Shown: piece after piece, positions 15,902-35,122 of the stretch | Position numbering within the stretch: position 1 is the first letter of the stretch | Layout of the letters: every line of letters begins with the position of its first letter | Assembly (NCBI RefSeq): GCF_016862995.1 | Contig: NZ_BOOA01000082.1 | Location: 1 to 35,673, forward strand | Reading direction: 5' to 3' | DNA: 35,673 nucleotides | DNA from: Acrocarpospora phusangensis | GTDB taxonomy: Bacteria > Actinomycetota > Actinomycetes > Streptosporangiales > Streptosporangiaceae | Position numbers and translations under genes: made by a program | The notes under the pieces: model-generated | The model's input: only the letters and a program-made list of their open reading frames with translations | Told to the model about the DNA's origin: nothing | Database searches by the model: none

Positions 15902-17542
15902 TTAGATCGTGACCGCACCGTCGGACGCGGAGCCGACCGTGGCCACGTACTTGGCCAGGACGCCGCGTTCGACCGGCCGTTCCGGGCGGGACCACGCCCG
16001 GGCCCGCAGGTCCAGTTCGGCCGGGTCGACGCGCAGGTCGAGGGTGCGCGCCGCCGAGTCGACGACCACGGTGTCGCCGTTCTGGACCAGCGCGAGCGGC
16101 CCGCCCCGGTACGCCTCCGGAGCCACGTGGCCGATGACGAGTCCGTGGGACACGCCGGAGAAGCGGCCGTCGGTGACGAGGGCGACGTCCAGGCCCTGTC
16201 CGACGAGGGCGCCGGTGATCGACAGCATCTCCCGCATGCCGGGGCCGCCCGCGGGGCCCTCGTACCGGACGATGACGACGTCGCCGTCGATGATCTGCCG
16301 AGCCTGGATGGCGGCGAAGCAGGCTTCCTCACCGTCGAACACCCTGGCCGGGCCGCTGAATACGAAATCGGGCTTTCCGCCGAGCTTGAGCACGCACCCG
16401 TCGGGCGCGAGCGACCCGCGCAGCACGGCGAGCGCGCCGGGACCCTTCACCGGCGCGGCCACGGTTCGCACGACCTCCTGGCCGGGTTCCTCCCGCGCCT
16501 CCCCGGCGACCTCGGCGAGGGTACGGCCGTCCACGAGGACGACGTCCTCGCGCAGCAGCCCGGCGTCCAGCAGTCGCCGTACGACCAGCGAGGTTCCGCC
16601 CGCCCGCCACAGGTCGGCGGCACTGTGCGGCCCCGCCGGCTTGACCCCGGCGACGATCGGCACCTGGTGGCAGATCCGGTCGATGTCGTCGATCGCCAGC
16701 GGCACGCCCGCCTCGCGCGCGATGGCCAGCAGATGCAGCACCGAGTTCGTGGAGCCGCCCATCGCGGCCACCGACACGATCGCGTTGTGCAGCGACGCTT
16801 CGGTGATCACGCGGGACGGGCGGGCGTCGCGGGCGAGCGCGTCCATCACGATCTCGCCGACCAGCCGGGCGGCGTCGTTCTTGGCCGGCGCCACCGCCGG
16901 GATGTCGCCCACGCCGAACGGCGCCAGGCCGAGGAAGTCGCAGATGCCGCTCATCGTGTTGGCCGTGTACTGGGCCGCGCACGTGCCCGCGCCGGGGCAG
17001 GCGTGCCGGGCCAGGTCGTCCACGTCGTCCTGGGTGAGCTTGCCCACGCTGCGCTCGCCGAGGGCCTCCCACATGTCCTGGATCGTCACGTCGCGGTCGC
17101 GCCACCGGCCGGGCATCATGCTGCCGCTGTAGAGGACCACCGACGGCACGTCCAGGCGGCTCAGCGCCATGATCGCGCCGGGGGCGGTCTTGTCGCAGCC
17201 GACGATCGCGACGATGGCGTCGAACTGGTGGGCGCGGCCCATCAGCTCGATCGAGTCGGCGATGACCTCCCGGCTGACCAGCGAGGCGCGCATGCCGGGC
17301 GTGCCCATGGTGAGGTTGTCCGACACGGCGATCGTGTTGAACTCCATCGGCGTTCCGCCCGCCTGCCGTACGCCTTCGGCGACGTGGGCGGCGAGTTCGC
17401 GGTGGGTGAGGTTGCAGGGCATGGTGCCGGTCCACGTGGAGGCGATGCCGATCTTGGGGCGGCGCATGTCCTCGTCGGTCAGGCCCATCGCGTACAGGTG
17501 GGAGCGCGCGGGTGCGCGGTCGGGGTCGTCGGCGATGCTCAT
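15902..17542 (-). CDS. IlvD/Edd-family dehydratase, probably for a sugar acid
   Basis: A 546-aa Fe-S dehydratase that removes water from a 2,3-dihydroxy acid to give a 2-keto-3-deoxy acid. Likely cluster cysteines are C43 (TMPCN), C116 (GCDKTAPG) and C188 (ACPGAGTC, residues 181-188). Other family blocks are [21 protein letters not shown] and [20 protein letters not shown]. The family contains both branched-chain biosynthetic IlvD and sugar-acid dehydratases (arabonate, xylonate, gluconate). The setting, last gene after an amidohydrolase and an FAH-type hydrolase in a sugar locus, favours a sugar-acid role, though sequence alone does not exclude IlvD. ATG at 17542 has GGGAG 5 nt upstream and overlaps the amidohydrolase stop (ATGA). 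The 129 bases beyond its stop contain no clear terminator. Confidence 0.85.
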
Positions 17543-18489
17543 GCGGTCTCCCTCGTGGTGGCGACGGGCAGGTCGAGGCCGAGCAGCCGGGCCGCGTTGC
17601 CCGCGAAGATCAGTTCGCGGTCGCGGGCCGAGAGGTTGAGCTCGTCCGCGATCCTGACCTGTTCTTCGGCGTACCTGCGGATATATCCCCACGGGAAGTC
17701 GCATGAGTCGGTCCCGAACAGGATGCGCTCAGGCCCGAACGTCTCGTGGAACTTGCGCAACAGCGCCTTCTGGTCCAGCTCGTACGGCATCCAGCGGGTC
17801 CACTCGTGGTTGCTGGAGCTGTCCACGTGCACGTTGGCGTTGGACCAGCCCAGGCGGAGCAGCTCCGCGGGGTAGCCGCAGCCGTAGTGCGCCACGACGA
17901 AGTTCACCGTGGGGAAGGCCTTGGCGACGTCGTGCAGGGCGAGCGGGTCCATGTTGGGCGCCCAGCCGAGGCCGCCGCCGCCGTTGACCGGGCCGAAGTG
18001 GAGCACGACGGGCAGCGCGTGCGCCTCGACGACCTCCCACACGGGCCACAGCGACCGGTCGGCCAGTGGCACGGTCACCCAGGGCGCGATGACCTTGTAG
18101 CCGCGCAGGCCGATCTCCACGGCGCGGCGCAGTTCGGTGGCGGCGCCGGGGGAGCAGGGCTGGTGGTTGGCGAATCCGACGAACCGGTCCGGGTGGGCGG
18201 CCACGACCTTCGCCAGCCGGTCGTTGCCGCCGCCCGACATGAACACCACGCGCTCCAGCCCGAAATCATCGGCCTCGGCCCGCCACGCCTTCGCCAGTTC
18301 CTCCGTCGTACGCGTCTCCGGGGTGGTGGGCGGCAGGCTTCGGGCTCTGCGTACCCGGTCGGCGTACTTGGCGGAGTTCTCCCGCAGGACGGCGAGTTTG
18401 GCGGGGCCGCAGACGTGCTCGTATTCGGCGTCGAGCCGGTCCTGGGTGGGTTCCTCGCCGGGGAAGTGGCAGTGAAAGTCGATGATCAC
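17539..18489 (-). CDS. Amidohydrolase-family (TIM-barrel) hydrolase, candidate lactonase
   Basis: A 316-aa metal-dependent hydrolase of the amidohydrolase-2 type. The N-terminal HxH metal pair is H6/H8 (DFHCHFPG). Further expected ligands are H164 (VVLHFGP), H201 (VAHYGCG) and D261 ([10 protein letters not shown]). The family includes sugar lactonases (rhamnono-, galactarolactonases) and decarboxylases. Sitting between an FAH-type hydrolase and an IlvD/Edd dehydratase, ring opening of a sugar lactone is the most economical role. GTG at 18489 overlaps the upstream stop by 4 nt (GTGA) and places the start right at the barrel's first strand, as usual for the family; an in-frame extension of 16 arginine-rich residues was rejected. 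Confidence 0.8.
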
Positions 18490-19325
18490 TTGACGCGCAC
18501 CCGGTTCCGCAGCACGCCCACGCCCTCTACCTCGCACTCGACGACGTCGCCGTCCTTCAGCCAGAGTTGAGGGTTGCGGCCCATGCCGACGCCGTGCGGG
18601 GTGCCGGTGGCGATGACGTCGCCGGGGTTGAGCGTCATGTACTGGGACAGATAGGAGATGATCTCGGGAATCCGGAAGATCATCTCGCTGGTGCTGCTGT
18701 CCTGGACGGTCTCCCCGTTGACGCGGGCACTGATGGCCAGCGCGTGCGGGTCCGCGATCTCGTCAGCGGTCACGATCCATGGCCCAAGCGGACAGAACCC
18801 ATCGAAGTTCTTCCCCCGGAACCACTGCCCATCCGCGAACTGCGCATCCCGCGCCGACACGTCATCCGCGACCGTGTACCCGAAGACGTGCGCCCCCGCC
18901 TCTTCCGGGCTGACGTTCCTGGCCGGAGCCCCGATGACAACGGCCAACTCGGCCTCCCAGTCAAGCTGCCCGGTACTCCCGGCAGCGACCACGATGTCGT
19001 CCACAGGCCCAGCCAACGTCTGCGCCGTCTTGACGAAGGCAAGCACCTTCGACGGAGTCTCCAGACCGGTCTCCCGGATGTGATCGGCATAGTTGAGCCC
19101 GATACAGATGATCTTCTGCGGATTGGCCAGCGGACTGAGCAGGCTGACATCGGCGAGCGGCACCGCAGCCCCGGCAGGAACGAATGACCCACCGGCAGCG
19201 ATAAGGTCTCGCACGGCATCGGCCATGAAGCCCCCGGCCTCCTCAGCAACCGGGACAACGACATCGCCTTCAACGAGCCCGCCCCAAACGCGACCGTCTG
19301 ACGCGCGATAACGAACAATACGCAT
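18486..19325 (-). CDS. Fumarylacetoacetate hydrolase (FAH) family protein
   Basis: A 279-aa protein with a short N-terminal domain (about 1-68) and the FAH catalytic domain. Signature blocks are KIICIGLNYADHIRETG (71-87), DWEAELAVVIG with metal-binding E124 and E126, GYTVADDVSARD (D154/D155), KNFDGFCPLGPWIV and MTLNPGDVIATGTPHGVG. Relatives hydrolyse or decarboxylate acylpyruvates; in oxidative sugar pathways they cleave 2,4-diketo-3-deoxy acids. The order FAH, amidohydrolase, dehydratase with 4-nt overlaps is a complete hydrolytic set apart from a dehydrogenase. ATG at 19325 has GGAG 8 nt upstream. The gap of 52 nt to the GH4 gene contains a LacI-like half palindrome, so these three genes may have their own promoter. 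Confidence 0.87.
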   Translation of the reverse strand: MRIVRYRASDGRVWGGLVEGDVVVPVAEEAGGFMADAVRDLIAAGGSFVPAGAAVPLADVSLLSPLANPQKIICIGLNYADHIRETGLETPSKVLAFVKTAQTLAGPVDDIVVAAGSTGQLDWEAELAVVIGAPARNVSPEEAGAHVFGYTVADDVSARDAQFADGQWFRGKNFDGFCPLGPWIVTADEIADPHALAISARVNGETVQDSSTSEMIFRIPEIISYLSQYMTLNPGDVIATGTPHGVGMGRNPQLWLKDGDVVECEVEGVGVLRNRVRVK

Positions 19326-19350
19326 GATCGAAACTCCGGAGATAGAAGAT

Positions 19351-19364
19351 TGTGAGCGCTTCTC
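19351..19364 (-). promoter_or_regulatory. Possible LacI-type operator before the FAH gene
   Basis: TGTGAGCGCTTCTC shares the TGTGAGCGCT half of the LacI-family consensus, but only the AGCGCT core is palindromic. It sits 26 nt upstream of the FAH start in the only sizeable gap of the lower minus arm. Confidence 0.3.
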
Positions 19365-19377
19365 GGCGAGGACCCGG

Positions 19378-20730: not shown

Positions 20731-20750
20731 ACGTTTCCTTCGTTAAAAGA

Positions 20751-21521
20751 TCAGGTGGAGAGGACGGTGACACCGGCGCCTTCGAGCGCGGCCACCGCCT
20801 CGACGGGCGTGCCCGTGTCGGTCACGACCGTGTCGATGCGCGAGAGTGGCGCGATCCGTACCGCGCTGCGCTGGCTGAACTTGCTGTGGTCGGCCAGGAT
20901 GACGAGCCGCTTCGCCGCCGCGATCATGTTGCGGTCGGTCTCGGCCTCGGCCAGGTGCGCGCCCAGCATCCCGTAACCCGGGTCCAGCCCGTACGCGCTG
21001 AAGAAGCCCACGTCGATGTGCACGTCCGCGAGCGCCTGCGTGGTGAGGTGCCCGAGCAGGGACAGTTCGGCGTTGCGCATGAGCCCGCCCAGCACGAGCA
21101 CCTGCGCCGTCTCCGACGAGGTCCCGATGGCGTACGCGATGGCGACGGAGTTCGTCACCACGGTGATGTCGGGCACCGCGACCAGGTGCGGGACCATCTG
21201 CGCGGTGGTCGAGCCGCCGGTCAGCAGCACGGCGCTGCCGGGGGTGACGAGCTGGGCCGCGCGGGCGGCGATGCGCCGCTTCTCGTCCAGGTTGCGCACC
21301 GACCGTTCCACCATCGGCGTCTCGGCGACCTCGGGGCCGCCCTCGACGCTGACGGCGCCGCCGTGGACGCGGCGCAGCAGTCCGCGCTCGTCCATCTCGT
21401 CGAGGTCGCGCCGCACGGTCGAGACGCTCACGTTGAGCAGCGCCGCGAGGTCGTCCACGCTCACCGACCCGCGGCTGCGCACGTGGGCGAGGAGTTCGCC
21501 CCTGCGCCTCTCACTCAGCAT
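20751..21521 (-). CDS. DeoR-family transcriptional regulator
   Basis: A 256-aa sugar-locus repressor. The N-terminal winged helix-turn-helix contains VSVDDLAALLNVSVSTVRRD and the signature DEMDERGLLRRVHGGA. The C-terminal sugar-phosphate sensor domain shows LLTGGSTTAQMV, TVVTNSVAIAYAI and GGLMRNAELSLLGHLT. DeoR proteins usually respond to a phosphorylated intermediate of the pathway they control, which suits the kinases and isomerase of the plus arm. Its ATG overlaps the preceding stop (TGATG). TGAGAG repeats upstream of the importer gene (25665-25747) are its most likely target. Confidence 0.92.
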   Translation of the reverse strand: MLSERRRGELLAHVRSRGSVSVDDLAALLNVSVSTVRRDLDEMDERGLLRRVHGGAVSVEGGPEVAETPMVERSVRNLDEKRRIAARAAQLVTPGSAVLLTGGSTTAQMVPHLVAVPDITVVTNSVAIAYAIGTSSETAQVLVLGGLMRNAELSLLGHLTTQALADVHIDVGFFSAYGLDPGYGMLGAHLAEAETDRNMIAAAKRLVILADHSKFSQRSAVRIAPLSRIDTVVTDTGTPVEAVAALEGAGVTVLST

Positions 21522-22516
21522 CAGTAACCGGCCTTTCTGTCCACCAGGTTCAGCAGGGGGCGGCCCTCGACCAGCCGGCGCAGGTTCTCGGTGAACAGGA
21601 CGCGGACATGATCGTGGTAGCCGGGCGCGAATCCTGCCACGTGCGGGGTGATCAGAACATTGCTTTCCGACCAGAAAGGGCTGCTTTCCGGCAACGGTTC
21701 CTGCGCGAAGACATCCGAGATGAGATGACCGACCTGACCGTTTCTGAGCGCGGCCAGCAGCGCGTCCTCGTCGACGACCCCGCCGCGTGCCCCGTTGATG
21801 ACCACGGCGCCCGGTTTGACGTGGCCGAACGCCGCCGCGTCGAGCAGGTGGTGGGTCTCGTCGGTGTGCGGGACCGTCAGCACCACGTAGTCGGAGCGCG
21901 CGAGCAGGTCGTGCAGGCCGTCGGGGCCGACGACGGTCGCGGGAGTCGCGTCGTCGGCCTCGCTGAAGCGTTCACCCGTCCGTACGCCGCCGCGGCGCAT
22001 GCCGATGACGTTCATGCCGAACGCGTGCGCCAAACGGCCGATCTCCTGGCCGATGCGGCCGTACCCGACGATGCCCACGGTGGAGCCGGGGAGCATGCGC
22101 GGCATCAGCCGGTTCCACCGGTAGTCCAGGTCGGGCCAGTGCCGGCGGCCGTGCAGGTCGATGAGGTGCGGCAGGTGGTGGGCGTGGGCGAGGATCATCA
22201 TCAGCACCCACTCGGCGAGCGGCTTGGGCGACACCCCGCCGATGGTGGTCACGGGCACGTCGGAGGCCCACAGGTCGGTGCCCTTCAGGTGGTCGCAGCC
22301 GCTCGTGTCGAGCTGCACCCAGCGCAGCCGGGGCGCGGCCCCGGCCGCGGGGAACGCGGTGTTCGTGTAGAGCACGTCGGTCTCGGCCAGCATGCCCGCC
22401 GGGATCTCCCCGGCGTCCTTCGCCGAATACCTGCGGACCTGTACGTCGGCCGAGACCGACGCCACCGAGGCGAGCCACGCGTCGTCGAAGTCCAGCGTCA
22501 CCAGCACGTTGATCAT
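21521..22516 (-). CDS. D-2-hydroxyacid dehydrogenase, NAD(P)-dependent
   Basis: A 331-aa oxidoreductase interconverting a 2-hydroxy acid and a 2-keto acid. The Rossmann loop is GIVGYGRIGQEIG (148-160). The catalytic set is R244 (INGARGG), E273 (AQEPLPE) and H292 (ITPHVAG). The order and spacing match glyoxylate/hydroxypyruvate reductase-like members, but the substrate is not readable. It is the only clear dehydrogenase in the minus arm, so it may reduce or oxidise a keto-acid intermediate. ATG at 22516 has GAGG 6 nt upstream and lies 8 nt after the permease stop; an in-frame upstream extension antisense-like to the permease was rejected. Confidence 0.92.
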   Translation of the reverse strand: MINVLVTLDFDDAWLASVASVSADVQVRRYSAKDAGEIPAGMLAETDVLYTNTAFPAAGAAPRLRWVQLDTSGCDHLKGTDLWASDVPVTTIGGVSPKPLAEWVLMMILAHAHHLPHLIDLHGRRHWPDLDYRWNRLMPRMLPGSTVGIVGYGRIGQEIGRLAHAFGMNVIGMRRGGVRTGERFSEADDATPATVVGPDGLHDLLARSDYVVLTVPHTDETHHLLDAAAFGHVKPGAVVINGARGGVVDEDALLAALRNGQVGHLISDVFAQEPLPESSPFWSESNVLITPHVAGFAPGYHDHVRVLFTENLRRLVEGRPLLNLVDRKAGY

Positions 22517-22524
22517 GGTTTTCC

Positions 22525-23340
22525 TCACTTGATGCCCGACCGGGCCATGCCTTCGACGAAGTGCCGCTGGAAGAGCGCGAACACCACGAGCATCGGGATC
22601 ATGGACAGCAGCGACATCGCCATCAGCGAGCCGTAGTCCTGGCCGTACTGGTTCTTCAGGAACAGCAGGCCGACCTGGAGGGTGTAGCTCTCCGGGTCCT
22701 TCAGCACGATGAGCGGCCAGGCGAACTCGTTCCACCGCCACATGAACGTGAAGATCACCAGTACGGCGATCAGCGGCCTGCACAGCGGCAGCACCACCGT
22801 ACGGAAGATGCGGAACTGCCCCGAACCGTCGCACTGGGCGGCCTCGATCAGCTCGTCCGGGATCGCCATCATGAACTGGCGGGCCATGAACAGGCCGAAC
22901 GCCTCGGCCAGCCGCGGGATGATCACGCCCCAGTCGCTGCCGATCAGCCCGAAGTCCACCACCAGGTGGAACTGCGGCACCATCACGACCTGCACCGGCA
23001 CCATCAGCGTGCTGATGATGAGGATGAACAGCACGTTCCTGCCGGGGAAGCGCAACTTGGCGAAGGCGTACCCGGCCATCAGGTTGATGACGACGGTGAG
23101 GGCCACCGCGACCACGGCGATGAACACCGAGTTGACCGCCCAGGTGCCGTACGGGAACTTGGCCAGCGGGTCGGTGAGGTTCTCCCAGCGCACGCGGGCC
23201 GGCCACAGGTGCAGGCCGGGGCCGCGCATGTCGGCCGAGGAGGAGATCGCGGTGACGACCATCCAGTAGACGGGGAACAGCATCGCGACCGCGCCGGTGA
23301 CGGCGAAGGCCAGGCGGTAGCGGGCGGAGTAGCGGGTCAC
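22525..23340 (-). CDS. Carbohydrate ABC transporter permease (MalG type)
   Basis: A 271-aa inner-membrane permease of the CUT1 class with about six hydrophobic segments, the first being YRLAFAVTGAVAMLFPVYWM. The EAA loop that docks the ATPase reads IPDELIEAAQCDGSGQFRIF. The C-terminus ends VEGMARSGIK, typical of MalG-like proteins. GTG at 23340 overlaps the partner permease stop by 4 nt. No ATP-binding subunit is in the window; actinomycetes commonly use a shared MsiK-type ATPase encoded elsewhere. Confidence 0.93.
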   Translation of the reverse strand: MTRYSARYRLAFAVTGAVAMLFPVYWMVVTAISSSADMRGPGLHLWPARVRWENLTDPLAKFPYGTWAVNSVFIAVVAVALTVVINLMAGYAFAKLRFPGRNVLFILIISTLMVPVQVVMVPQFHLVVDFGLIGSDWGVIIPRLAEAFGLFMARQFMMAIPDELIEAAQCDGSGQFRIFRTVVLPLCRPLIAVLVIFTFMWRWNEFAWPLIVLKDPESYTLQVGLLFLKNQYGQDYGSLMAMSLLSMIPMLVVFALFQRHFVEGMARSGIK

Positions 23341-24257
23341 GCCACATCCCTCCTGGAGTTGACGCGCCACTGCACGATCGTCATCACCAGCACGATCAGA
23401 TAGAGCACGACGCCGATGGCCGAGGCGTAACCCTGCTGCCGCTGCTCGAACCCGGCCGAGTACGCGTACGTGACGAGCATCGTGGTCGAGTTGCCGGGCC
23501 CGCCGCCGGTCATGACGTAGACGATGTCGAAGACCTGGAAGCTGTTGATGACGCCGATCACGATCAGGAAGAACGTGGTCGGGCCGAGCTGGGGGATCGT
23601 GATGCGGCGCAGCGTCGCCCACCGGGAGGCGCCGTCGCAGCGGGCCGCCTCGAACACCTCGCGCGGGATGCCCTGCAGGGCGGCCAGGTAGACGACCATG
23701 TTGAAGCCCAGGCCGATCCACAGGCTGATCGCGACCAGCGACAGCATCGCCGGCGCGCCCTCGGACTGCCAGGGCACCGGGCCCAGCCCGACGGCCTCCA
23801 GGACCCGGTTGACCAGGCCGATGTCCTCGTTGAACAGCCACGCGCCGATGAGCGCGCTGCTCACGCCGGAGATGACCGCGGGCAGATAGTAGATCGCCCG
23901 GATCAGCCCGCGCGCGGGCATGCGCTTGTTCAGTAGCAGCGCCGCCGCCAGGCCCGCGACCAGGCACAGCGGCACCGACACGGCCGTGTAGACGGCCGTG
24001 TTCAGCAGCGCCGTCCAGAAGATCTTGTCGCTCAGGATCTCCTGGTAGTTCCCCAGGCCGACCCACTTGGCGATGCCGAAACCGCGGGTCTGCTGGAGGC
24101 TGATCCAGAAGACCTGGATCAGCGGCCAGAACATGAAGACCGCGAAGACCGCCACCGCGGGCGCGGCGAAGGCCAGGCCGGTCAGCGCCTCGCGCGCCCG
24201 CCGGGACCTGAGCCGGCCCGGCGGCCCGGCGTTCACCGTGCTCGTCACGGGTGCCAT
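23337..24257 (-). CDS. Carbohydrate ABC transporter permease (MalF type)
   Basis: A 306-aa inner-membrane permease, partner of the MalG-type protein. After a basic cytoplasmic head (about 1-28) it has about six membrane segments, starting LTGLAFAAPAVAVFAVFMFW. The EAA loop is IPREVFEAARCDGASRWATL, followed by RITIPQLGPTTFF. The GGGPGNSTTMLV loop is common in MalF-like subunits. ATG at 24257 has GGAGG 7 nt upstream, 11 nt after the binding-protein stop. Confidence 0.93.
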   Translation of the reverse strand: MAPVTSTVNAGPPGRLRSRRAREALTGLAFAAPAVAVFAVFMFWPLIQVFWISLQQTRGFGIAKWVGLGNYQEILSDKIFWTALLNTAVYTAVSVPLCLVAGLAAALLLNKRMPARGLIRAIYYLPAVISGVSSALIGAWLFNEDIGLVNRVLEAVGLGPVPWQSEGAPAMLSLVAISLWIGLGFNMVVYLAALQGIPREVFEAARCDGASRWATLRRITIPQLGPTTFFLIVIGVINSFQVFDIVYVMTGGGPGNSTTMLVTYAYSAGFEQRQQGYASAIGVVLYLIVLVMTIVQWRVNSRRDVA

Positions 24258-24268
24258 CGGGCCCTCCT

Positions 24269-25597
24269 CTACGCGGACAGCGCCTTCTCGATGGACGTGC
24301 TGATCGCCGCGACCGTGTCGTCCGCGGACTGGCTGCCGACGAAGTAGCCCTCCAGGTTCTGCACGAGCGCGTCGTTCACGCCGGAGAAGCCGGGCAGCGT
24401 CACGAACCTGACCAGGTCGGCCGGCATGGTGGTGGCCTGCTGCTGGAAGACCGGCATCAGGTCGGGCGAGACGGCGTAGTCCAGGGTGGCGCCGGCCAGG
24501 TCCTTGCGGGCCGGCAGCACCGTCGTCTGCTCGCAGAACAGCTGCATGTTGGCGGGTTCGGCGAGGAACTTGGCGAACGCGGCGGCCGCCTCGGGCGCCT
24601 TGCTCTGGGTGGTCACCGCGACCGCGTTGCCGCCGAGGTCGGCGGCGGCGCCGCCGGGGCCCTTGGGCAGGAAGGTCGCGCCGATCTCGATGCCCTTGGC
24701 GGTGGTGCCGATGTCGGGCAGCAGGAAGTCGCCGACGAAGGCCATCGAGATCTTGCCGGAGCCGAACACCTGGTCGGGGCTGTTGGCCGTCTTGACCATC
24801 ATGTTCTTGGGCATCAGGCCCTTGTCGTAGAACGACTTGGTGAACTCCAGCGTCTGGCGCGCCTGCGGCGAGTCGAACACGACGCTGCTGCCGTCGGGGC
24901 CCAGGGCCTTGCCGCCGGCCTGCCAGAGCCAGTTGAACCAGCGGTACGCGCCGTACTGCTGCCAGTTGACGCCGAAGGGGGCGGCGCCGGTGCCGGCGGC
25001 CTTGAGCTTCTCGGCGACCTCCAGGAACTGCTCCCACGTCCACGCGGTGTCCAGCGTGGTCGGCACGTCGGTGATGCCGGCCTTGGCGAAATGGGCCTTG
25101 TTGTAGAGGATCGCGCTGGTGTCGGTGTGGTGCGGCACGCCGTACGGCTTGCCCTGGTACTGCACGCCCGCCCAGAGCGCGTCGATGAACTGCGCGGAGT
25201 CCGCGCCGACGGTGGCCGACAGGTCGGCGAGCACGCCCTGCGAGCTGTAGATCCCGATGTCGTTGTACGTCACGCGGAACAGGTCGGGCCCCTGCCCGGA
25301 CTGGAGCCGGGCGTCCAGGGTGGTGCGCATCTGGTCGTACGGCAGCTGCTCGACCTTGACCTTCACGCCGGAGTTGGCCTTCTCGAAGGCGCGGGCGATC
25401 GTGTTGAACGCGGCCATCTCGGCGTCGGAGCCCCAGACGGAGAACGTCAGGTTTCCGGTGGCGGCTCCGGCGCTCGCGGCGGCGGCCGGAGCACTGGCGG
25501 TGCCGTCGTCGCCGCAGGCGGCGAGGGCGCTCATCGCGGCGGCGCCGGCCGCGGTCATGCCGGCCGCGCGAAGGAACTGGCGGCGGTTGAAATTCAT
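24269..25597 (-). CDS. Sugar-binding lipoprotein of the ABC transporter
   Basis: A 442-aa extracellular solute-binding protein. The head NFNRRQFLRAAG carries a twin-arginine motif, followed by a hydrophobic stretch and a lipobox LAAC with C28 as the lipidated residue, so it is probably Tat-exported and membrane-anchored. A low-complexity Ala/Ser spacer follows. The mature fold shows the family-1 pattern: NLTFSVWGSDAEMAAFNTIA, YDQMRTTLDARLQSGQGPDLF, YGVPHHTDTSAILYNKAHF and a late PAEPANMQLF-like helix region. Ligand is unknown. ATG at 25597 has AGGAGG 6 nt upstream. It is the first gene of the minus operon, with a visible promoter upstream. Confidence 0.93.
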   Translation of the reverse strand: MNFNRRQFLRAAGMTAAGAAAMSALAACGDDGTASAPAAAASAGAATGNLTFSVWGSDAEMAAFNTIARAFEKANSGVKVKVEQLPYDQMRTTLDARLQSGQGPDLFRVTYNDIGIYSSQGVLADLSATVGADSAQFIDALWAGVQYQGKPYGVPHHTDTSAILYNKAHFAKAGITDVPTTLDTAWTWEQFLEVAEKLKAAGTGAAPFGVNWQQYGAYRWFNWLWQAGGKALGPDGSSVVFDSPQARQTLEFTKSFYDKGLMPKNMMVKTANSPDQVFGSGKISMAFVGDFLLPDIGTTAKGIEIGATFLPKGPGGAAADLGGNAVAVTTQSKAPEAAAAFAKFLAEPANMQLFCEQTTVLPARKDLAGATLDYAVSPDLMPVFQQQATTMPADLVRFVTLPGFSGVNDALVQNLEGYFVGSQSADDTVAAISTSIEKALSA

Positions 25598-25632
25598 GGG
25601 GGGCCTCCTAAGGGCGCCGACCTGGTGTGCCG

Positions 25633-25662
25633 TTCCTATCAACTTCACGCAGAAAGCGTCAA
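25633..25662 (-). promoter_or_regulatory. Promoter of the importer operon
   Basis: Minus-strand TTGACG (25662-25657) and TAGGAA (25638-25633) are separated by 18 nt and lie about 35 nt upstream of the binding-protein start. The -35 is near-consensus. A TTTTGAGAGC copy sits directly upstream of it. Confidence 0.55.
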
Positions 25663-25664
25663 TA

Positions 25665-25747
25665 GCTCTCAAAATGGTTGCTTGACAGTCATCTGGGGCG
25701 TGCGTACGGTCCTGTCCTGAGAGTTCTGCGCGTTTTTGAGAGTTTTG
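25665..25747. promoter_or_regulatory. Three TGAGAG repeats, candidate DeoR operators
   Basis: TTTTGAGAGC on the minus strand at 25674-25665, TGAGAGTTCTG on the plus strand at 25718-25728 and TGAGAGTTTTG at 25737-25747. The two plus-strand copies are direct repeats starting 19 bp apart. Direct repeats on both sides of a promoter are typical of DeoR-family sites, and a DeoR gene is in the operon. The motif-to-regulator link is inference. Confidence 0.45.
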
Positions 25748-25765
25748 GGGGTGTGGGGTGCGCGG

Positions 25766-26242
25766 TCAGGCAGGGCGGTCGTCCCAGGGGCGGGTCACGC
25801 CCAGCACGTCGGCGTCCCCATGCCCGGTGAGGCGCAGGGCGGCCGCGGAGATCTCCTCCGGGGTGTGCCACCGCTTCGACGGATGCCAGCCGAGTAACAG
25901 CCTCGGCTGGTCCGCCAGTGGCGCGGGCGGCGCGTCCGGGGCCGCGTACGCGCTGGTCAGCACCTGCACGACGCGTCCGGCACGGGCCCGCACGGCCTCC
26001 CAGGCCGCCTGGTCGCCGAACGGCATGTACACCAGGGCCAGGTCGAATCGCCGGTCCCCCAGTGCCGCTACGAAATTGGGAACGTTTGTAACGTCGGACC
26101 ACACTATGTCGGCAATGTCTGAAGTGCGACCTTTATGGCGAGAAACGACTGTAACGACCATTCCTTGGGCGGCCAGCTCCGCGACGGCCGGCGCGAGGAC
26201 TCCCGTCCCACCGATCACGAGGACCTGAGCAGTGCCTGACAT
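25766..26242 (-). CDS. Small NAD(P)-binding Rossmann protein
   Basis: A 158-aa protein beginning MSGTAQVLVIGGTGVLAP, a beta-strand followed by a GxxGxL nucleotide loop (11-16), then VVTVVSRH (second strand) and a DLALVYMPFGD segment. It is far shorter than normal SDR or NmrA proteins and has no YxxxK catalytic pair, so it could be a sensor or a minimal reductase. ATG at 26242 has AGGAG 10 nt upstream. Its first codons overlap head-to-head with the divergent PfkB gene. Codons 27-60 use many A/T-ending codons (GTT, ACA, AAA, TCA, ATA), unlike every neighbour, as expected if a promoter for the plus arm is embedded here. Confidence 0.72.
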   Translation of the reverse strand: MSGTAQVLVIGGTGVLAPAVAELAAQGMVVTVVSRHKGRTSDIADIVWSDVTNVPNFVAALGDRRFDLALVYMPFGDQAAWEAVRARAGRVVQVLTSAYAAPDAPPAPLADQPRLLLGWHPSKRWHTPEEISAAALRLTGHGDADVLGVTRPWDDRPA

Positions 26243-27167
26243 GGAATTCGATCTCCTGGTGGTGGGGGAGCTGAACGCCGACGTCATCGTCGAGTGCGGC
26301 GACGTGCGGCCCTCCTTCGGGCAGGTCGAGGAGATCGTGGAGGACGCCACGATCGTCCTCGGCAGCTCCGGGGCGATCACCGCCTGCGGGGCGGCCCGCC
26401 TCGGCGCCCGCGTCGCCATGGCCGGCGTGGTCGGCGACGACTGGCTCGGCGCGTTCGTGCTCGACCGGATGCGCGAGCGGGGGGTCGACACACGGTACTG
26501 CCTGCGCAGACCCGGCCGTCGCACCGGCATGACGGTCGTGCTCGGCGCCCGCGGCGACCGGGCCATGCTGACCTTCCCCGGCGAGATCGGCCGCCTGGCC
26601 GCCGCCGACGTGCCCGCCGCCGCCCTCGCCTCCGCGCGCCACCTGCACGTCAGCTCCTACTTCCTCCAGTACGACCTCTGGGACGGCCTGCCCACCCTCC
26701 TCAAGGACTTCCCGGGCACCACCTCGATCGACCCCGGCTGGGACCCGTCCCGCTCCTTCGACCACGGGCTGCCCGCGCTCCTGCCGCAGGTGCACTACCT
26801 GCTGCCCAACGAGCAGGAGGCCGAGCGGATCGCGCGGGCCGCCGGCGGCGCCCCCGCCTGCGGCCTGGTCGTCAAACGCGGCGGCGAGGGCGCGACCCTG
26901 AACCTGCCCGACGGCACCGCGCTGCGCGTGGACGCGCCCGTGATCACCCCGGTCGAGACGACCGGCGCGGGCGACTCCTTCGACGCCGGCTTCCTGGCCA
27001 CGCTCCTACGCGGCGGCACCTACGCCGACGCCCTGCGCGTCGCCTCCGCGTGCGGCGCCCTCGCCACCCGGAGGCCGGGCGGCACGGCCGCGCAGCCGGA
27101 CCTCGCCGAGGCCCTCGAACTCGCCAACTCCCTCACCGTCACCGACCTCCAGGAGACCCCGCAGTGA
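26232..27167 (+). CDS. PfkB-family carbohydrate kinase
   Basis: A 311-aa sugar kinase of the ribokinase fold. N-terminal strand FDLLVVGELNADVIVE, glycine-rich substrate lid ATIVLGSSGAITACGAARLGA, and the C-terminal ATP/catalytic block TTGAGDSFDAGFLATLL with the base aspartate near residue 247. The sequence LLPNEQEAERI is the usual PN.E motif. As first gene of the plus arm it probably phosphorylates the incoming sugar. GTG at 26232 is preferred because GAGG lies 9 nt upstream; an ATG at 26241 is the alternative and has no good site. Either start overlaps the divergent Rossmann gene. Its stop overlaps the SIS gene start (GTGA). Confidence 0.88.
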   Translation: MPDMEFDLLVVGELNADVIVECGDVRPSFGQVEEIVEDATIVLGSSGAITACGAARLGARVAMAGVVGDDWLGAFVLDRMRERGVDTRYCLRRPGRRTGMTVVLGARGDRAMLTFPGEIGRLAAADVPAAALASARHLHVSSYFLQYDLWDGLPTLLKDFPGTTSIDPGWDPSRSFDHGLPALLPQVHYLLPNEQEAERIARAAGGAPACGLVVKRGGEGATLNLPDGTALRVDAPVITPVETTGAGDSFDAGFLATLLRGGTYADALRVASACGALATRRPGGTAAQPDLAEALELANSLTVTDLQETPQ

Positions 27168-28075
27168 CCGCAACGACCGCCCCCGAGCTGGCCCGGCGTA
27201 CGCAGGCCGAAGTCGAGAGCCAGCCGGACACCTGGCGCCGCGCCATCGAGCTGGCCGCCCGCACCGGGGCCCTGCCCGCCGCCGGCGCGAACGTGCTCGG
27301 CGTCGGCTGCGGCACCTCCTACTACATCCTGGACAGCTACGCCCGCCGCCGGCGGCAGCTCGGCCAGGGCCGTACGCGCGCCGTCATCGCCACCGAGCTC
27401 GACGCCGTCGATCTCGCGGAGCCCGGTGACGCGGTCATCCTGCTGTCGCGTTCTGGCACCACCAGCGATCTCGTGCGCGTCGGCCGGGAGCTGTCGGAAC
27501 GCACGCGCACGATCGCGATCACCGGTACGCCCGGCTCGCCGATCACCGAGGTCGCGCACGAGACCATCGTCATGGACTTCGCCGACGAGCAGTCGGTCGT
27601 GCAGACCCGGTACGCGACCACCGCGCTGACCCTGCTGCGCGCCTCCATCGGCGACGACGTGGCCGGGCTGCCGGATCTCGCCGAAGCCGCGCTGGCCGAG
27701 CCGCTGGTCGCCGATCCGGCCGACTTCGACCGGGTCGTCTTCCTCGGCACCGGCTGGACGCTGGGGCTGGCGGAGGAGGCGGCGCTCAAGTGCCGGGAGG
27801 CGGCCAAGCTGTGGACGGAGGCGTACGCCAGCCTGGAGTACCGGCATGGGCCGATCGCGTGCGCGTCCAAGGAGAGCCTGGTCTGGGCGTTGAGCCCGCT
27901 GCCCGACGACGTCGTCGAGGCCGTCGCCGCCACGGGGGCCACGCTCCGCGTCGCGACCGGCGACCCGCAGGCCGAGCTGGTTCGTGTGCACCGCCTGGCC
28001 ATCGCGTACGCGCGGCACCGGGGGCTGGAATGCGACACCCCGGAGCATCTGTCCCGTTCGGTCGTCGTGGCGTAG
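27164..28075 (+). CDS. SIS-domain phosphosugar isomerase (AgaS/GlmS-like)
   Basis: A 303-aa protein with two SIS domains and no glutaminase domain. The first contains NVLGVGCGTSYYI and phosphate-binding SRSGTTSD (95-102). The second contains VVFLGTGWTLGLAEEAALKCREAAKLW and SLEYRHGPIA, matching the EGALKxKE...HGP pattern of the GlmS isomerase half. Such free-standing proteins (AgaS, FrlB type) isomerise or deaminate amino-sugar or related 6-phosphates to ketose phosphates. With a LacC-like kinase and class II aldolase next to it, a route through tagatose- or fructose-6-phosphate is likely. GTG at 27164 overlaps the kinase stop. Confidence 0.88.
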   Translation: MTATTAPELARRTQAEVESQPDTWRRAIELAARTGALPAAGANVLGVGCGTSYYILDSYARRRRQLGQGRTRAVIATELDAVDLAEPGDAVILLSRSGTTSDLVRVGRELSERTRTIAITGTPGSPITEVAHETIVMDFADEQSVVQTRYATTALTLLRASIGDDVAGLPDLAEAALAEPLVADPADFDRVVFLGTGWTLGLAEEAALKCREAAKLWTEAYASLEYRHGPIACASKESLVWALSPLPDDVVEAVAATGATLRVATGDPQAELVRVHRLAIAYARHRGLECDTPEHLSRSVVVA

Positions 28076-28077
28076 TC

Positions 28078-28365
28078 ATGCCGTTCGTCCAGTACGTCAC
28101 CGCGCATTCCGTGCCCGCGGGCCTGTCCGAGAGGCTGGCCGCCGAGGTGGCCGACGCGCTCGGGCTGCCCGGTGACGCGGTGATCGCGCAGCGGCTGGCC
28201 GCCCTCGACGGTGTCGGCGTGACGGCGGTCGTGCGTGGCAGGCTCCGCGATCCGGAGGCCATGCGTGCGGCCGTCGGGCGGGCGGGCGCGCTGCTGGCCG
28301 CGTGCCTGGAGCTCGACCCGGACTTCGTCTTCGTGTCCTGGCCCGATCCGGGGGTGCTCGGATGA
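28078..28365 (+). CDS. Small MP-start protein, possibly tautomerase-like
   Basis: A 95-aa protein beginning MPFVQYVTAHSV, then an amphipathic helix (LSERLAAEVADALGL) and a second strand/helix set. A proline directly after the initiator Met and a following beta strand recall 4-oxalocrotonate tautomerases, where Pro1 is the catalytic base, but the rest does not clearly match. A tautomerase or mutarotase-like activity on a sugar-phosphate or keto-acid would fit the operon. It starts 2 nt after the SIS stop and its stop overlaps the next ATG (ATGA), so it is translationally coupled. Confidence 0.7.
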   Translation: MPFVQYVTAHSVPAGLSERLAAEVADALGLPGDAVIAQRLAALDGVGVTAVVRGRLRDPEAMRAAVGRAGALLAACLELDPDFVFVSWPDPGVLG

Positions 28366-29273
28366 TCCTCACCGTCACCCTCAATCCGGCCCTGGACGTC
28401 ACCTACCGGGTGCCCGGCCTGACGCTCGAAGCCGTCAACCGTGTCGCCGGTGTGTCGGTACGCGCCGGGGGCAAAGGGCTGAACGTGGCCAGGGTGTTGC
28501 ACGCGCTCGGGCACGAGGTGACGGCGCTCGGCCTGGCCGGAGGCCCCGACGGCGATCGTCTGGTGGCGTCGGCCGGCATTCCCGCCGCGTTCACCCGGGT
28601 GTCCGGCGAGACCCGCAGGACCATCGCGGTCGTCGCGGACAGCGGGGTGACCATGCTGAACGAGGCCGGTCCGCGGATCAGTCTCGCGGAGTGGTCCGCG
28701 TTCCAGGCCGACTTCGCGCGCCGGGCGCCGCGCGCCTCGGCCGTCGTCCTGTCGGGCAGCCTGCCGCCCGGCCTGCCCGCCGACGCGTACGCGGTGCTCG
28801 CCGCGCTCGCCGGTGACGTGCCCACGGTCGTGGACACCGAAGGCGACGCCCTGATCAACGCGCTGGCCGCCCGCCCGCATGTGGTCAAACCCAACACGGA
28901 CGAGCTGAATCGCACGTTAGGCGTCACGTCGGTGCGGGACGGCGCGATGCGGCTGCGCGAACTGGGCGCCCGCGCCGTCGTCGTGTCCGACGGGCCGCGC
29001 GGCCTGCACGCCGACACCCCCGAAGGGTTGTGGCGGGCCGTCCCGCCGTACGCCGAGGGCAATCCCACCGGAGCCGGCGACGCGGCCGTGGCGGCGATCG
29101 CGATGGGCGTGGTCGCCCGCTGGGACTGGGCCGAGACGTTACGGCACGCCGCCGCCCTGTCGGCCGCGGCCGTACGCGCGCCGCTGGCCGGGCAGGCCGA
29201 CCACACCGCCTACCGGGCCAACCTCGCGGTCATCGCCGCGGAGCCACTGGAGAGAGAGGGCACGCAGTGCTGA
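28362..29273 (+). CDS. LacC/FruK-type phosphosugar kinase
   Basis: A 303-aa PfkB-family kinase that adds a second phosphate to a ketose phosphate (fructose-1-P or tagatose-6-P). The opening MILTVTLNPALDVTY is characteristic of the 1-phosphofructokinase/tagatose-6-phosphate kinase group, followed by the glycine motif AGGKGLNVARVLHALG and the C-terminal NPTGAGDAAVAAIAMG (catalytic Asp near 240). VVKPNTDELN is the PN.E motif. Its product feeds the class II aldolase, whose start lies inside the last 7 nt of this gene. Codons 186 and 260 are TTA. Confidence 0.9.
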   Translation: MILTVTLNPALDVTYRVPGLTLEAVNRVAGVSVRAGGKGLNVARVLHALGHEVTALGLAGGPDGDRLVASAGIPAAFTRVSGETRRTIAVVADSGVTMLNEAGPRISLAEWSAFQADFARRAPRASAVVLSGSLPPGLPADAYAVLAALAGDVPTVVDTEGDALINALAARPHVVKPNTDELNRTLGVTSVRDGAMRLRELGARAVVVSDGPRGLHADTPEGLWRAVPPYAEGNPTGAGDAAVAAIAMGVVARWDWAETLRHAAALSAAAVRAPLAGQADHTAYRANLAVIAAEPLEREGTQC

Positions 29274-30082
29274 CCCCAACCGCCGAGATCATCGCCGCCG
29301 CGTACGCCGCCGGGACCGGAGCGGGCGCGTTCAACGTGATCCAGGTCGAGCATGCGCAGGGCATCGTGGCCGGTGCGGAGCAGGCCGGGCTACCGGTGAT
29401 TCTGCAGGTCAGCGAGAACACCGTGGGCTACCACGGCGGGCTGGCGGCCATCGGGGCGGCCTGCCTGGAGATCGCGAATACGGCGTCGGTGCCGGTCGCG
29501 GTGCACCTCGACCATGCGACCCGCGGTGACCTCGTGGATCAGGCGGTGGCGCTCGGGTTCGGTTCGGTGATGTTCGACGCGTCGGCTCTGCCCTACGAGG
29601 CGAACGTGGCCGCCACCGCCGAGGTGGTGCGGCGGACGGGTGTCTTCGTGGAGGCCGAACTGGGGGAGGTCGGCGGCAAGGACGGGGTGCACGCTCCGGG
29701 CGCGCGGACTGATCCCGCCGAAGCCGCCGCGTATGTCGCCGCCACCGGGGTCGGCGCGCTCGCCGTCGCCGTGGGCACGTCGCACGCGATGCTCACCCGC
29801 GATGCCGCGCTGGACTTCGACCTGATCACCGCCCTGCGGGCGGCCGTGCCGGTGCCGCTGGTGCTGCACGGCTCCTCGGGCGTCGCCGACGACGGCCTCA
29901 CCAAGGCCGTACGCAACGGCATGACGAAGATCAATATCGCTACCCAGCTGAACAAGGCGTTCACGGCGGAGGTGCGCCGCGCCCTGGCCGACGAGCGGAT
30001 CGTCGACCCGCGCAAGTACCTCGGGCCGGCCAGGGACGCCGTCGCCGCGCAGGTCGCCCACCTGCTGCGCGTCCTGCACTAG
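29267..30082 (+). CDS. Class II (zinc) ketose-bisphosphate aldolase
   Basis: A 271-aa aldolase splitting a ketose-1,6-bisphosphate into dihydroxyacetone phosphate and glyceraldehyde-3-phosphate. Zinc ligands expected are H83 (VHLDH, with D82 as catalytic base), H173 (GTSHAM) and H201 (LVLHGSSGV). E134 lies in the ELGEVGG block, and KINIATQLNKAF is the usual phosphate-binding area. Length and motifs fit GatY/KbaY/AgaY-type tagatose- or fructose-bisphosphate aldolases. GTG at 29267 overlaps the kinase gene by 7 nt and has GAGGG 6 nt upstream. Confidence 0.92.
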   Translation: MLTPTAEIIAAAYAAGTGAGAFNVIQVEHAQGIVAGAEQAGLPVILQVSENTVGYHGGLAAIGAACLEIANTASVPVAVHLDHATRGDLVDQAVALGFGSVMFDASALPYEANVAATAEVVRRTGVFVEAELGEVGGKDGVHAPGARTDPAEAAAYVAATGVGALAVAVGTSHAMLTRDAALDFDLITALRAAVPVPLVLHGSSGVADDGLTKAVRNGMTKINIATQLNKAFTAEVRRALADERIVDPRKYLGPARDAVAAQVAHLLRVLH

Positions 30083-30107
30083 TCCGTACAGGTTCCAGGA
30101 GATGACC

Positions 30108-30389
30108 ATGAGCCTCACCCCGCACCCGGACCCGGGCGCGATCCTCGCCGAGAACGAGCGGCGCGCGCTCGAACGGGAGGGCATCCCGATGTTCCTCGCC
30201 CTGGAGGACCTCCGAGGGCCGATCCCGCCCGTCGCCGACCGCGCGGAAGGCCCGGCTCTGGCCGAGCTGACCGGCACGTACGCGGCGGCGGTGCGTCCCG
30301 AGGCCGAGGACGGCGACCTGGCGGCCCTGGCCTCCGTCGTCACCGTGCTGGCCCGCGTCCACTTCTTCCCCGAGAACGGAACCGCATGA
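30108..30389 (+). CDS. Small protein of unknown function, coupled to the NodB-like gene
   Basis: A 93-aa soluble acidic protein (MSLTPHPDPGAILAENERRAL...), helical in appearance, with no signal or membrane segment and no motif I recognise. ATG at 30108 is preferred over one 6 nt earlier because AGGAG then sits 7-8 nt upstream instead of touching the start. Its stop overlaps the following ATG (ATGA), which suggests the two products are made in equal amount and may work together. Confidence 0.7.
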   Translation: MSLTPHPDPGAILAENERRALEREGIPMFLALEDLRGPIPPVADRAEGPALAELTGTYAAAVRPEAEDGDLAALASVVTVLARVHFFPENGTA

Positions 30390-31063
30390 CCACGGGCTTC
30401 ACCCAGCACCGTACGGCTCTCGCCGAGGGCCGCTACCTGCGGGTCGTCAACTACCACAACACGCCGGAATCCATGGCCCCCCAACTCCGCGAGGAACTCG
30501 CCGCGTACGCCGAGTCCTTCGCCGGCGTCACGATCGCCGACCTCGACCGGTTCTACGCCACCGGCGTCTGGCCCCTCGACCGGCCCGGCTTCATCCCGGT
30601 CTTCTACGAGGGCTACCGCAACAACCACACCGTCGCCGCCCCCATCTGCGACGCCCTCGGCCTCACCGCCTGGTTCCCGATCATCACGCGTTTCGTCGAC
30701 TGCCCTCCGGCCGACCAGCGCGCCTTCGCCGACGCCCACAACATCGACTTGGTGGAAGAGGAACTCTCCTCCGACCGCCTGGCCCTGACCTGGGACGAAG
30801 TCGCCGAAATCGCCGAACGACACATCGTCGTCCCCCACACCGGCAGCCACGAGCAGATCACCAACATCCGCACCCCCGCCGACATCGACCGCGAACTCAT
30901 CACCCCCCGCCGCAAGATCCAGGAGGTCACCGGCCAGGAAGCCCCCGCCACCGTCTACCTCTACGGCACCCCCTTCGGCACCCACCCCCTCCAGGACCAG
31001 GCCGTCCTCAACGCCGGCTACCGCTACCAGATAAGCAACACCATGCTCCAAAGAATCGCCTGA
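30386..31063 (+). CDS. NodB-like (polysaccharide deacetylase family) protein with altered catalytic motif
   Basis: A 225-aa cytoplasmic protein with the layout of carbohydrate esterase family 4: strand RVVNYHNTPE, strand FIPVFYEGYRNN then AAPICDALGLTAWFPIIT, and VPHTGSHEQI (H151, H155) matching the metal-binding H(S/T)xxH block. In active deacetylases the first motif is TFDDG. Here it is FYEG, so the base aspartate is Tyr74 and the metal aspartate is Glu75. It could be a deacetylase with changed metal site, or an enzyme of different function on the same barrel. A late YLYGTPFGTHPLQDQ segment stands where motif 4 would be. Last gene of the plus arm. Confidence 0.72.
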   Translation: MTTGFTQHRTALAEGRYLRVVNYHNTPESMAPQLREELAAYAESFAGVTIADLDRFYATGVWPLDRPGFIPVFYEGYRNNHTVAAPICDALGLTAWFPIITRFVDCPPADQRAFADAHNIDLVEEELSSDRLALTWDEVAEIAERHIVVPHTGSHEQITNIRTPADIDRELITPRRKIQEVTGQEAPATVYLYGTPFGTHPLQDQAVLNAGYRYQISNTMLQRIA

Positions 31064-34846: not shown

Positions 34847-34944
34847 TCCCTGTCCTTCCGCCAGAGGTCCCCTGATGGAAGGCGTGCCATCCCGTTCCAT
34901 GCCGGGACACGACCTAATTTTCGGGCAGGTAACCAGTAGGTTTC

Positions 34945-34955
34945 TGAAAATTTCA
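34945..34955. promoter_or_regulatory. Third GAAA-N-TTTC palindrome
   Basis: TGAAAATTTCA is a perfect 11-bp palindrome about 100 nt upstream of the protease start. It has the same core as the two sites upstream of the xylanase at the other end of the window. Confidence 0.35.
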
Positions 34956-35122
34956 TTCATCCGATCATTAACGTTCGGGTGAATGACGGGAAATGCCAGG
35001 CGAAACGCATCGGAGCGCACGCGCCTCGTTCGCATCGTCGAGGGCCCGTTGACGGCCCTTCGTCGGCTGGGATGTACTCCGCGCGATCCAGTCAGCCGAA
35101 ACGAGACCGCCGGCAAGGAGAA

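What the first reader, a model, noticed from the sequence alone, without database searches (positions are those of the whole stretch)
15902..31063. Two-arm sugar locus combining ketose-bisphosphate and acid-sugar enzyme sets
One importer, one DeoR regulator and a GH4 glycosidase are linked to two chemically different branches. One is isomerase, kinases and class II aldolase; the other is lactonase-like amidohydrolase, IlvD/Edd dehydratase and FAH hydrolase. Known sugar operons usually carry one of these. The set, with two small coupled proteins and a NodB-like protein of altered active site, does not match any pathway I can name. A glycoside of two different sugars, or an acid plus amino sugar unit, would explain both branches.
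Basis: partly seen in the sequence, partly recalled or inferred. Interest (0 to 1): 0.75.

Follow-up and report, generated by a model that had tools for sequence, protein, structure and literature searches.

The report
Two-armed amino-sugar and acid-sugar locus
A conserved 17-gene block in soil actinomycetes joins an importer and a sugar-splitting enzyme to one set of enzymes for an amino sugar and another set for a sugar acid, and looser versions in gut and marine bacteria suggest an undescribed way of eating a mixed sugar compound.

Summary
Window 15902-31063 carries 17 genes: importer (three genes), 2-hydroxyacid dehydrogenase, DeoR regulator, GH4, FAH, amidohydrolase-2 and IlvD on one strand; PfkB, SIS, a tautomerase-like protein, a LacC-type kinase, class II aldolase, a 95-aa protein and a NodB-like protein on the other; and a small Rossmann-like protein between. 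The proposed refutation (arms rarely co-occur) fails: in 297 genomes of the order, close relatives of the amidohydrolase and of the NodB protein occur in the same 10, 10.7-13.4 kb apart, with the set in the same order; one lacks the second kinase and aldolase.

The plus arm looks like the galactosamine (Aga) route; distant versions add GatZ or use a BadF-type kinase. The other arm looks like a non-phosphorylative sugar-acid route with an FAH hydrolase. Distant clusters in three phyla mostly keep importer, GH4, 2-hydroxyacid dehydrogenase, SIS and the small-protein/NodB pair. That pair is fused in some Streptomyces, has a CE4-like fold and has lost the catalytic-base aspartate. Best reading: catabolism of an imported hexosamine-plus-acid-sugar glycoside. 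The substrate is unproven.

The parts
24269..25597 (-). solute-binding protein of a sugar ABC importer (SBP_bac_1/8; twin-arginine and lipobox N-terminus read from the sequence)
   Evidence: orthologs 73-94% in 9 genomes
23337..24257 (-). ABC permease 1
   Evidence: Pfam BPD_transp_1 (in a longer frame)
22525..23340 (-). ABC permease 2
   Evidence: NCBIfam UgpE/MalG-like, below equivalog cut-offs
21521..22516 (-). D-2-hydroxyacid dehydrogenase
   Evidence: Pfam 2-Hacid_dh_C; NCBIfam best D-2-hydroxyacid dehydrogenase, below cut-off; a relative in 17 of 17 distant GH4-type clusters
20751..21521 (-). DeoR-family regulator, best NCBIfam model AgaR (187.7 bits, cut-off 260)
   Evidence: 73-75% relatives sit beside SIS-kinase-aldolase modules in L022, L025, L028
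19378..20730 (-). GH4 NAD-dependent glycosidase with a CHG motif
   Evidence: relatives at 46-82% in 16 of 19 distant genomes
18486..19325 (-). FAH-family hydrolase with the HxxE pair of acylpyruvate hydrolases
   Evidence: motif in 10 of 10
17539..18489 (-). Amidohydro_2 protein, possible lactonase (GTG start overlaps the FAH stop)
15902..17542 (-). IlvD/Edd dehydratase of the dihydroxy-acid dehydratase type
25598..25765 (.). control region of the minus-strand operon: two ACTCTCA boxes 19 bp apart and a sigma-70-like promoter, conserved to differing degrees in the 10 genomes
25766..26242 (-). 158-aa Rossmann-like protein; its ATG overlaps the PfkB1 ATG on the other strand
26241..27167 (+). 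PfkB1, ribokinase-type kinase, proposed hexosamine kinase
   Evidence: GAGD in 10 of 10
27164..28075 (+). SIS protein, proposed hexosamine-6-phosphate deaminase/isomerase (EYRHGP motif)
28078..28365 (+). 95-aa tautomerase-like protein with a proline right after the start codon
   Evidence: 8 of 9 aligned sequences as called; the ninth, L036, has a GTG right before its proline; weak MIF match, 14.5 bits, cut-off 22
28362..29273 (+). PfkB2, LacC/FruK-type ketose-phosphate kinase
   Evidence: hexose kinase subfamily model over cut-off, 265.9 vs 216.4
29267..30082 (+). class II ketose-bisphosphate aldolase (FbaA/GatY type)
   Evidence: HLDH motif in 9 of 9
30102..30389 (+). 95-aa partner protein (sm2) of the NodB-like protein
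   Evidence: fused to NodB in Streptomyces L055, L056, L072
30386..31063 (+). NodB-like protein, motif 1 VFYEG in place of TFDDG, HTGSH kept

Best explanation
The block is a catabolic unit for an imported glycoside that joins a 2-amino sugar (most likely galactose-configured) to a sugar that is broken down as its acid. Proposed steps: (1) the binding protein and two permeases import it (shown by family only; the ATPase must come from elsewhere); (2) the sm2-NodB pair prepares it, perhaps by removing an N-acyl group (inferred); (3) GH4 splits it with NAD inside the cell (family shown, linkage inferred); (4) PfkB1 phosphorylates the amino sugar, the SIS protein deaminates and isomerises it to a ketose-6-phosphate, PfkB2 makes the bisphosphate, and the class II aldolase gives two triose phosphates (inferred from families and the known Aga pathway); (5) the other half is oxidised and its lactone opened (Amidohydro_2, a guess), IlvD dehydrates the acid to a 2-keto-3-deoxy acid, a dehydrogenase (perhaps the 2-hydroxyacid dehydrogenase) oxidises it, and FAH cleaves the 2,4-diketo acid to pyruvate and a small acid (inferred). 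The DeoR protein controls at least the minus-strand operon (inferred).
For: All 17 genes in the same order in 8 of 9 further genomes (two of the eight with a 1.4-kb insertion); in the ninth the second kinase and aldolase are missing inside a contig without N, and its IlvD is cut by the contig start. One marker of each arm in the same 10 of 297 genomes. DeoR, SIS, LacC-type kinase and GatY-type aldolase are the families of the steps printed for galactosamine use. DeoR-SIS-kinase-aldolase modules stand without the rest of the block in L022, L025, L028. Six of 17 distant clusters (YIM130001, KL109B, C51, E01, B95, Lapin) have a BadF-type kinase and no PfkB1, and 4 of 17 have GatZ/KbaZ. FAH carries the HxxE pair reported for the Route III hydrolase. 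Six distant clusters (five Bacillota, one Rhodobacteraceae) carry a DmpG aldolase and DmpF dehydrogenase, which would be the aldol-cleavage alternative for the same kind of intermediate.
Against: No SDR-type sugar dehydrogenase or 2-keto-3-deoxy-acid 4-dehydrogenase lies in the window block, although 8 of 17 distant clusters (all eight Bacillota or Rhodobacteraceae) have an SDR. SIS, PfkB1, PfkB2, aldolase, DeoR, FAH, GH4 and the 2-hydroxyacid dehydrogenase all score below equivalog cut-offs, so no single substrate is fixed. IlvD is closest to dihydroxy-acid dehydratases. The amidohydrolase has no full-length relative in 19 distant genomes; 3 of 19 have a weak partial match on another contig. 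Several distant SIS proteins (L065, L080, L085, L089) lack the EYRHGP motif in the form searched. The NodB motif lacks the catalytic base. The 10 genomes fall in only three genera of the tool's grouping, so they are not independent.
Confidence: 0.5

Rival explanations
1. Two pathways for two separate sugars that share an importer and a regulator and have been inherited together; no single glycoside joins them.
For: The SIS-PfkB2-aldolase module exists without the rest, and the own genome has a second SIS protein, 72% identical, elsewhere; a same-genus relative keeps only SIS, PfkB2, aldolase and a fragment of the Rossmann-like gene (L016); the two arms sit on opposite strands and the operator-like boxes were found only before the minus operon.
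Against: One importer only; joint presence of both markers in 10 of 10 genomes; GH4, SIS, 2-hydroxyacid dehydrogenase and often IlvD stay together in other phyla with other kinases and aldolases.
Confidence: 0.2
2. One linear pathway: both arms act in turn on one carbon skeleton, such as an amino-sugar acid, and the acid-arm enzymes prepare or finish what the kinase arm starts.
For: The core kept in distant clusters mixes both arms (GH4, 2-hydroxyacid dehydrogenase, IlvD, SIS, kinase); no SDR-type sugar 1-dehydrogenase lies in the block to make a second acid from a second sugar.
Against: FAH or DmpG on one side and kinase plus class II aldolase on the other are two complete endings, each yielding central metabolites.
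Confidence: 0.18
3. The acid comes from an N-acyl group: sm2-NodB hydrolyses an amide on an acylated amino sugar, perhaps a natural product, and the acid arm consumes the acyl part.
For: NodB travels with the importer in most clusters, including four of five that have a YcaO protein (an amide-activating family, recalled) and no GH4; nearest folds are N-deacetylases; IlvD is of the short branched-acid type.
Against: Catalytic-base position is tyrosine or phenylalanine in 24 of 24 aligned sequences; an amidohydrolase/lactonase would have no clear role.
Confidence: 0.12

Closest known systems
GalN/GalNAc (Aga) catabolic pathway with AgaR, AgaS, LacC or AgaZ, AgaY
   Same: DeoR-family regulator, SIS protein, ketose-phosphate kinase, class II aldolase; some distant clusters add GatZ/KbaZ
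   Different: no PTS and no AgaA deacetylase among the 17 genes; a PfkB or BadF-type kinase and an ABC importer take their place; linked to GH4 and an acid arm; SIS scores far below the AgaS-family cut-off (35 vs 529 bits)
Non-phosphorylative sugar pathways, Route III (L-fucose, L-rhamnose, pentoses; PMC6336799)
   Same: dehydratase giving a 2-keto-3-deoxy acid, FAH hydrolase with HxxE; ABC importer and regulator in the cluster
   Different: dehydratase is of the dihydroxy-acid type, SDR dehydrogenases are missing from the block, and the amidohydrolase is not clearly a lactonase
GH4 glycosidases (LplD alpha-galacturonidase, AglA alpha-glucosidase)
   Same: two-domain GH4 protein, Cys-His motif (CHG)
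   Different: relatives at 46-82% in three phyla lie on the NodB contig in 14 of 16 genomes; below NCBIfam cut-offs for described subfamilies; no tree was made, and one 38% relative (G411) was found in a genome without the NodB protein
CE4 (NodB) deacetylases such as PplD and PgaB
   Different: motif 1 aspartates replaced (Y/F and E/N), no signal peptide apparent in the window protein, paired with a small partner protein

Membership tests
Galactosamine (Aga) pathway | DeoR-family regulator with SIS protein, LacC-type kinase and class II aldolase in one locus | tested here: met
   pathway steps
Galactosamine (Aga) pathway | SIS protein acts on galactosamine-6-phosphate | not testable with these tools
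   nearest solved relatives are GlcN6P deaminase and GlmS SIS domains; agaS_fam 35.4 bits, cut-off 529
Non-phosphorylative Route III | FAH hydrolase with HxxE pair | tested here: met
   but NF053535 235.5 bits, cut-off 500
Non-phosphorylative Route III | SDR 4-dehydrogenase for the 2-keto-3-deoxy acid in the cluster | tested here: not met
   no full-length SDR among the 17 genes; an SDR is present in 8 of 17 distant clusters
Non-phosphorylative Route III | sugar-acid dehydratase | tested here: inconclusive
   IlvD/Edd family, but scores as dihydroxy-acid dehydratase
GH4 | GH4 N- and C-terminal domains with Cys-His motif | tested here: met
   Pfam PF02056 and PF11975 over cut-off; CHG in 10 of 10
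CE4 deacetylase | motif 1 TFDDG with catalytic base and metal aspartates | tested here: not met
   Y/F at the base position in 24 of 24 aligned sequences, E or N at the metal position; the roles of the two aspartates are recalled, FDDG is seen in PgaB
CE4 deacetylase | NodB-like fold | tested here: met
Tautomerase superfamily | amino-terminal proline and tautomerase fold | tested here: inconclusive
   Pro right after the start in 8 of 9 as called, ninth possible; MIF 14.5 bits, below cut-off 22; fold not tested
Amidohydrolase lactonase (COG3618) | lactonase rather than decarboxylase subtype | tested here: inconclusive

The most novel reading that the evidence does not exclude
The locus is one local version of an undescribed catabolic pathway found in three phyla, whose signature is a two-protein enzyme (sm2 with a NodB-fold protein lacking the CE4 catalytic base) that acts on an imported amino-sugar compound by a chemistry not known for CE4, with GH4 and either FAH or DmpG/DmpF downstream.
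Probability: 0.4. Interest if true: 0.7.

Novelty: new variant of a known kind. Interest (0 to 1): 0.52.

Why it matters
If right, it names a whole route for a mixed amino-sugar and acid-sugar compound in soil, gut and marine bacteria, and gives function to two protein families: sm2, which matched no Pfam or NCBIfam model, and its NodB partner, which matched Pfam's deacetylase model just under the cut-off. It gives concrete assays: binding-protein ligand, GH4 linkage, and the reaction of the NodB pair.

Tried and rejected
Housekeeping IlvD: rejected as the main reading because the genome holds other IlvD/Edd proteins, none close (33-51% over the matched parts), and because it is fixed in the block; its natural substrate is still open. 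Sulfoquinovose, inositol, fructosamine and uronate (KduI/KduD) routes were considered from memory; none fits all genes, though a KduI/IolB-like protein lies in the three Rhodobacteraceae clusters. PuuE-type allantoinase for the NodB protein: considered because it too is an altered NodB fold (passages of PMC10967932); it was not among the rows listed, which excludes nothing. The DmpG/DmpF pair near Streptomyces KL109B (L057) lies beside a LigB-type aromatic cluster and was not counted for this pathway. Literature: ten searches; no title or abstract start that they listed describes this gene set, and searches returned zero papers. Listings were short and the library is partial, so this is weak evidence of absence. 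Of papers, I saw search listings, and passages of PMC4694137, PMC10967932, PMC6336799 and PMC12118421; nothing else was read. The table uses bit-score thresholds of my choice, so some absences are weak relatives (for example SIS in Aliiruegeria and sm2 in Roseisalinus, seen by blastp) or contig edges. My gene caller made antisense errors in some loci (for example L096, L097 and parts of L067); the table therefore uses tblastn.
Full report
WHAT IS THERE. The region 15902-31063 holds two divergent runs of genes. Minus strand, from 25597 down: solute-binding protein, two ABC permeases, D-2-hydroxyacid dehydrogenase, DeoR regulator, GH4, FAH-family hydrolase, Amidohydro_2 protein, IlvD/Edd dehydratase. 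Plus strand, from 26241 up: PfkB1, SIS protein, 95-aa tautomerase-like protein, PfkB2, class II aldolase, 95-aa protein (here sm2), NodB-like protein. A 158-aa Rossmann-like protein (25766-26242, minus) lies between them, and its ATG overlaps that of PfkB1. That makes 17 genes. Pfam and NCBIfam confirm the families of the larger ones. Most genes overlap or abut their neighbours, as in operons.

ONE UNIT OR TWO. Among 297 genomes of the order, a close relative (82% or more) of the amidohydrolase is found in 10, and the NodB-like protein in 10; they are the same 10, each time on one contig and 10.7-13.4 kb apart. By random draw such overlap has odds of about 10^-18, but the genomes fall in three genera of the tool's grouping, so this overstates the evidence. 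Three more genomes have a 41-42% amidohydrolase without NodB; there it follows a PfkB gene in all three, and in the one looked at (L040) another ABC transporter lies beside it. Eight carry all 17 genes in the same order; two of these (L019, L038) have an N-free insertion of about 1.4 kb between the binding-protein and permease genes, with a frame that looks like a TnpB/OrfB transposon protein (my reading of the sequence, no family search). In the ninth, Nonomuraea deserti L021, PfkB2 and aldolase are missing in an N-free stretch and IlvD is cut by the contig start. No flanking gene of the window was found beside the block in the others: NodB side tested in six records (L043, L044, L046, L049, L050, L051), IlvD side in eight loci with 1.1-2.7 kb each; shared flanks were seen only between Herbidospora loci (L043 with L044; L018 with L039) apart from one 28-base match between L036 and L037. 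The block is patchy: three same-genus genomes listed have neither marker, and one of them (G027, L016) keeps only SIS, PfkB2, aldolase and a fragment of the Rossmann-like gene.

THE AMINO-SUGAR ARM. The SIS protein is nearest to glucosamine-6-phosphate deaminases and GlmS SIS domains and has the EYRHGP motif in 10 of 10 close orthologs; some distant SIS proteins lack it in that form. PfkB2 passes the hexose-kinase subfamily cut-off; the aldolase lies between FbaA and GatY models, just under the cut-off of the general one. The DeoR protein is best matched by AgaR, below cut-off. Three loci (L022, L025, L028) carry DeoR-SIS-kinase-aldolase without the other genes, with 64-80% relatives of DeoR, SIS and aldolase and 40-52% of the kinase. 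These are the families of the galactosamine route as printed: AgaR of the DeoR family, AgaS, LacC or AgaZ, AgaY (passages).

DISTANT CLUSTERS. A named scan with the NodB alignment gave 30 loci, 9 of them the close set and 21 distant. In a table of 32 clusters, 17 distant ones are of the GH4 type (16 from that scan, and G581). Of these 17: 2-hydroxyacid dehydrogenase 17, GH4 15 in the DNA held (the other two genomes have it elsewhere), SIS 14, IlvD 12, PfkB1 or BadF-type kinase 12, SDR 8, FAH 7, GatZ 4, amidohydrolase 0. In whole-genome searches GH4 was found in 16 of 19 distant genomes; in 14 it lies on the NodB contig within about 13 kb, in the other two on another contig (read from contig numbers and coordinates). 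In Streptomyces KL109B GH4-FAH-IlvD (80, 68, 78%) lie beside a BadF-type kinase and another SIS protein. Six clusters add DmpG and DmpF. Some absences are contig or window edges. In a draw of 396 genomes of the phylum, NodB was found in 5 and GH4 (E up to 1e-80) in 3; the window's genome and G581 have both, 1.7 kb apart in G581; three genomes have NodB only (two of them seen with YcaO) and one has a 38% GH4 only.

THE ACID ARM. FAH carries HxxE in 10 of 10, aligned with the L-2,4-diketo-3-deoxyrhamnonate hydrolase chain 8gsr; PMC6336799 describes this pair and three fates of 2-keto-3-deoxy acids: aldol cleavage, dehydration, or dehydrogenation and hydrolysis (passages). FAH here and DmpG/DmpF in others would be two such fates; three Bacillota clusters have both. 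Against a neat fit: IlvD is of the dihydroxy-acid type, no SDR is in the block, and the amidohydrolase cannot be told from decarboxylases by fold (model pLDDT 81).

CONTROL. The stretch before the binding-protein gene has two ACTCTCA boxes 19 bp apart in the window and a TTGACG/GATAGG-like promoter. The promoter is conserved across the ten genomes; the first box is close to the window's in the Herbidospora loci, the second reads TCTGTCA there, and both vary more in L036, L037 and L021. The exact CTCTCAAAA string, either way round, occurs in the window only in this stretch. That the DeoR protein binds there is a guess.

VERDICT. Both arms follow known chemistry at the level of families; their union with GH4, the 2-hydroxyacid dehydrogenase and the sm2-NodB pair was not met in the literature listings seen. 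The substrate is the open question.

Noticed in passing
L054:4729-6246; L070:14734-16239; L072:8148-9662; L098:1-1494; L099:11037-12539: A YcaO-domain protein sits with the NodB-like protein (and in four of five with importer genes) in place of GH4 and the sugar enzymes; a second, unexplained use of the NodB module. Pfam was run on L070 and L072 only; the others by similarity.
   Followed up: partly
L060:6987-8774: One open frame in Faecalicatena orotica joins a MATE-like transporter to an sm2-like domain; in L059 the two are separate neighbouring genes.
   Followed up: no
L019:9688-11106; L038:9584-11001: Insertion of about 1.4 kb between binding-protein and permease genes in two Herbidospora, with a TnpB/OrfB-like frame.
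   Followed up: no
window 26240-26243: The start codons of the Rossmann-like gene and PfkB1 overlap on opposite strands (CATG), kept in six Herbidospora loci; in L036, L037 and L021 the two starts are further apart.
   Followed up: partly
window 3738-7166: NNH1-NACHT-LRR protein, an architecture seen in bacterial anti-phage proteins (recalled).
   Followed up: no
window 8711-15292: Large RHS-repeat/SpvB-like protein next to the block.
   Followed up: no
window 32489-35116: Subtilase-family protein with bacterial Ig and PKD-like domains.
   Followed up: no
L040:9438-11368: PfkB and a 41% relative of the amidohydrolase form a pair beside another ABC importer and a Lyase_1 protein in a different genus.
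   Followed up: partly
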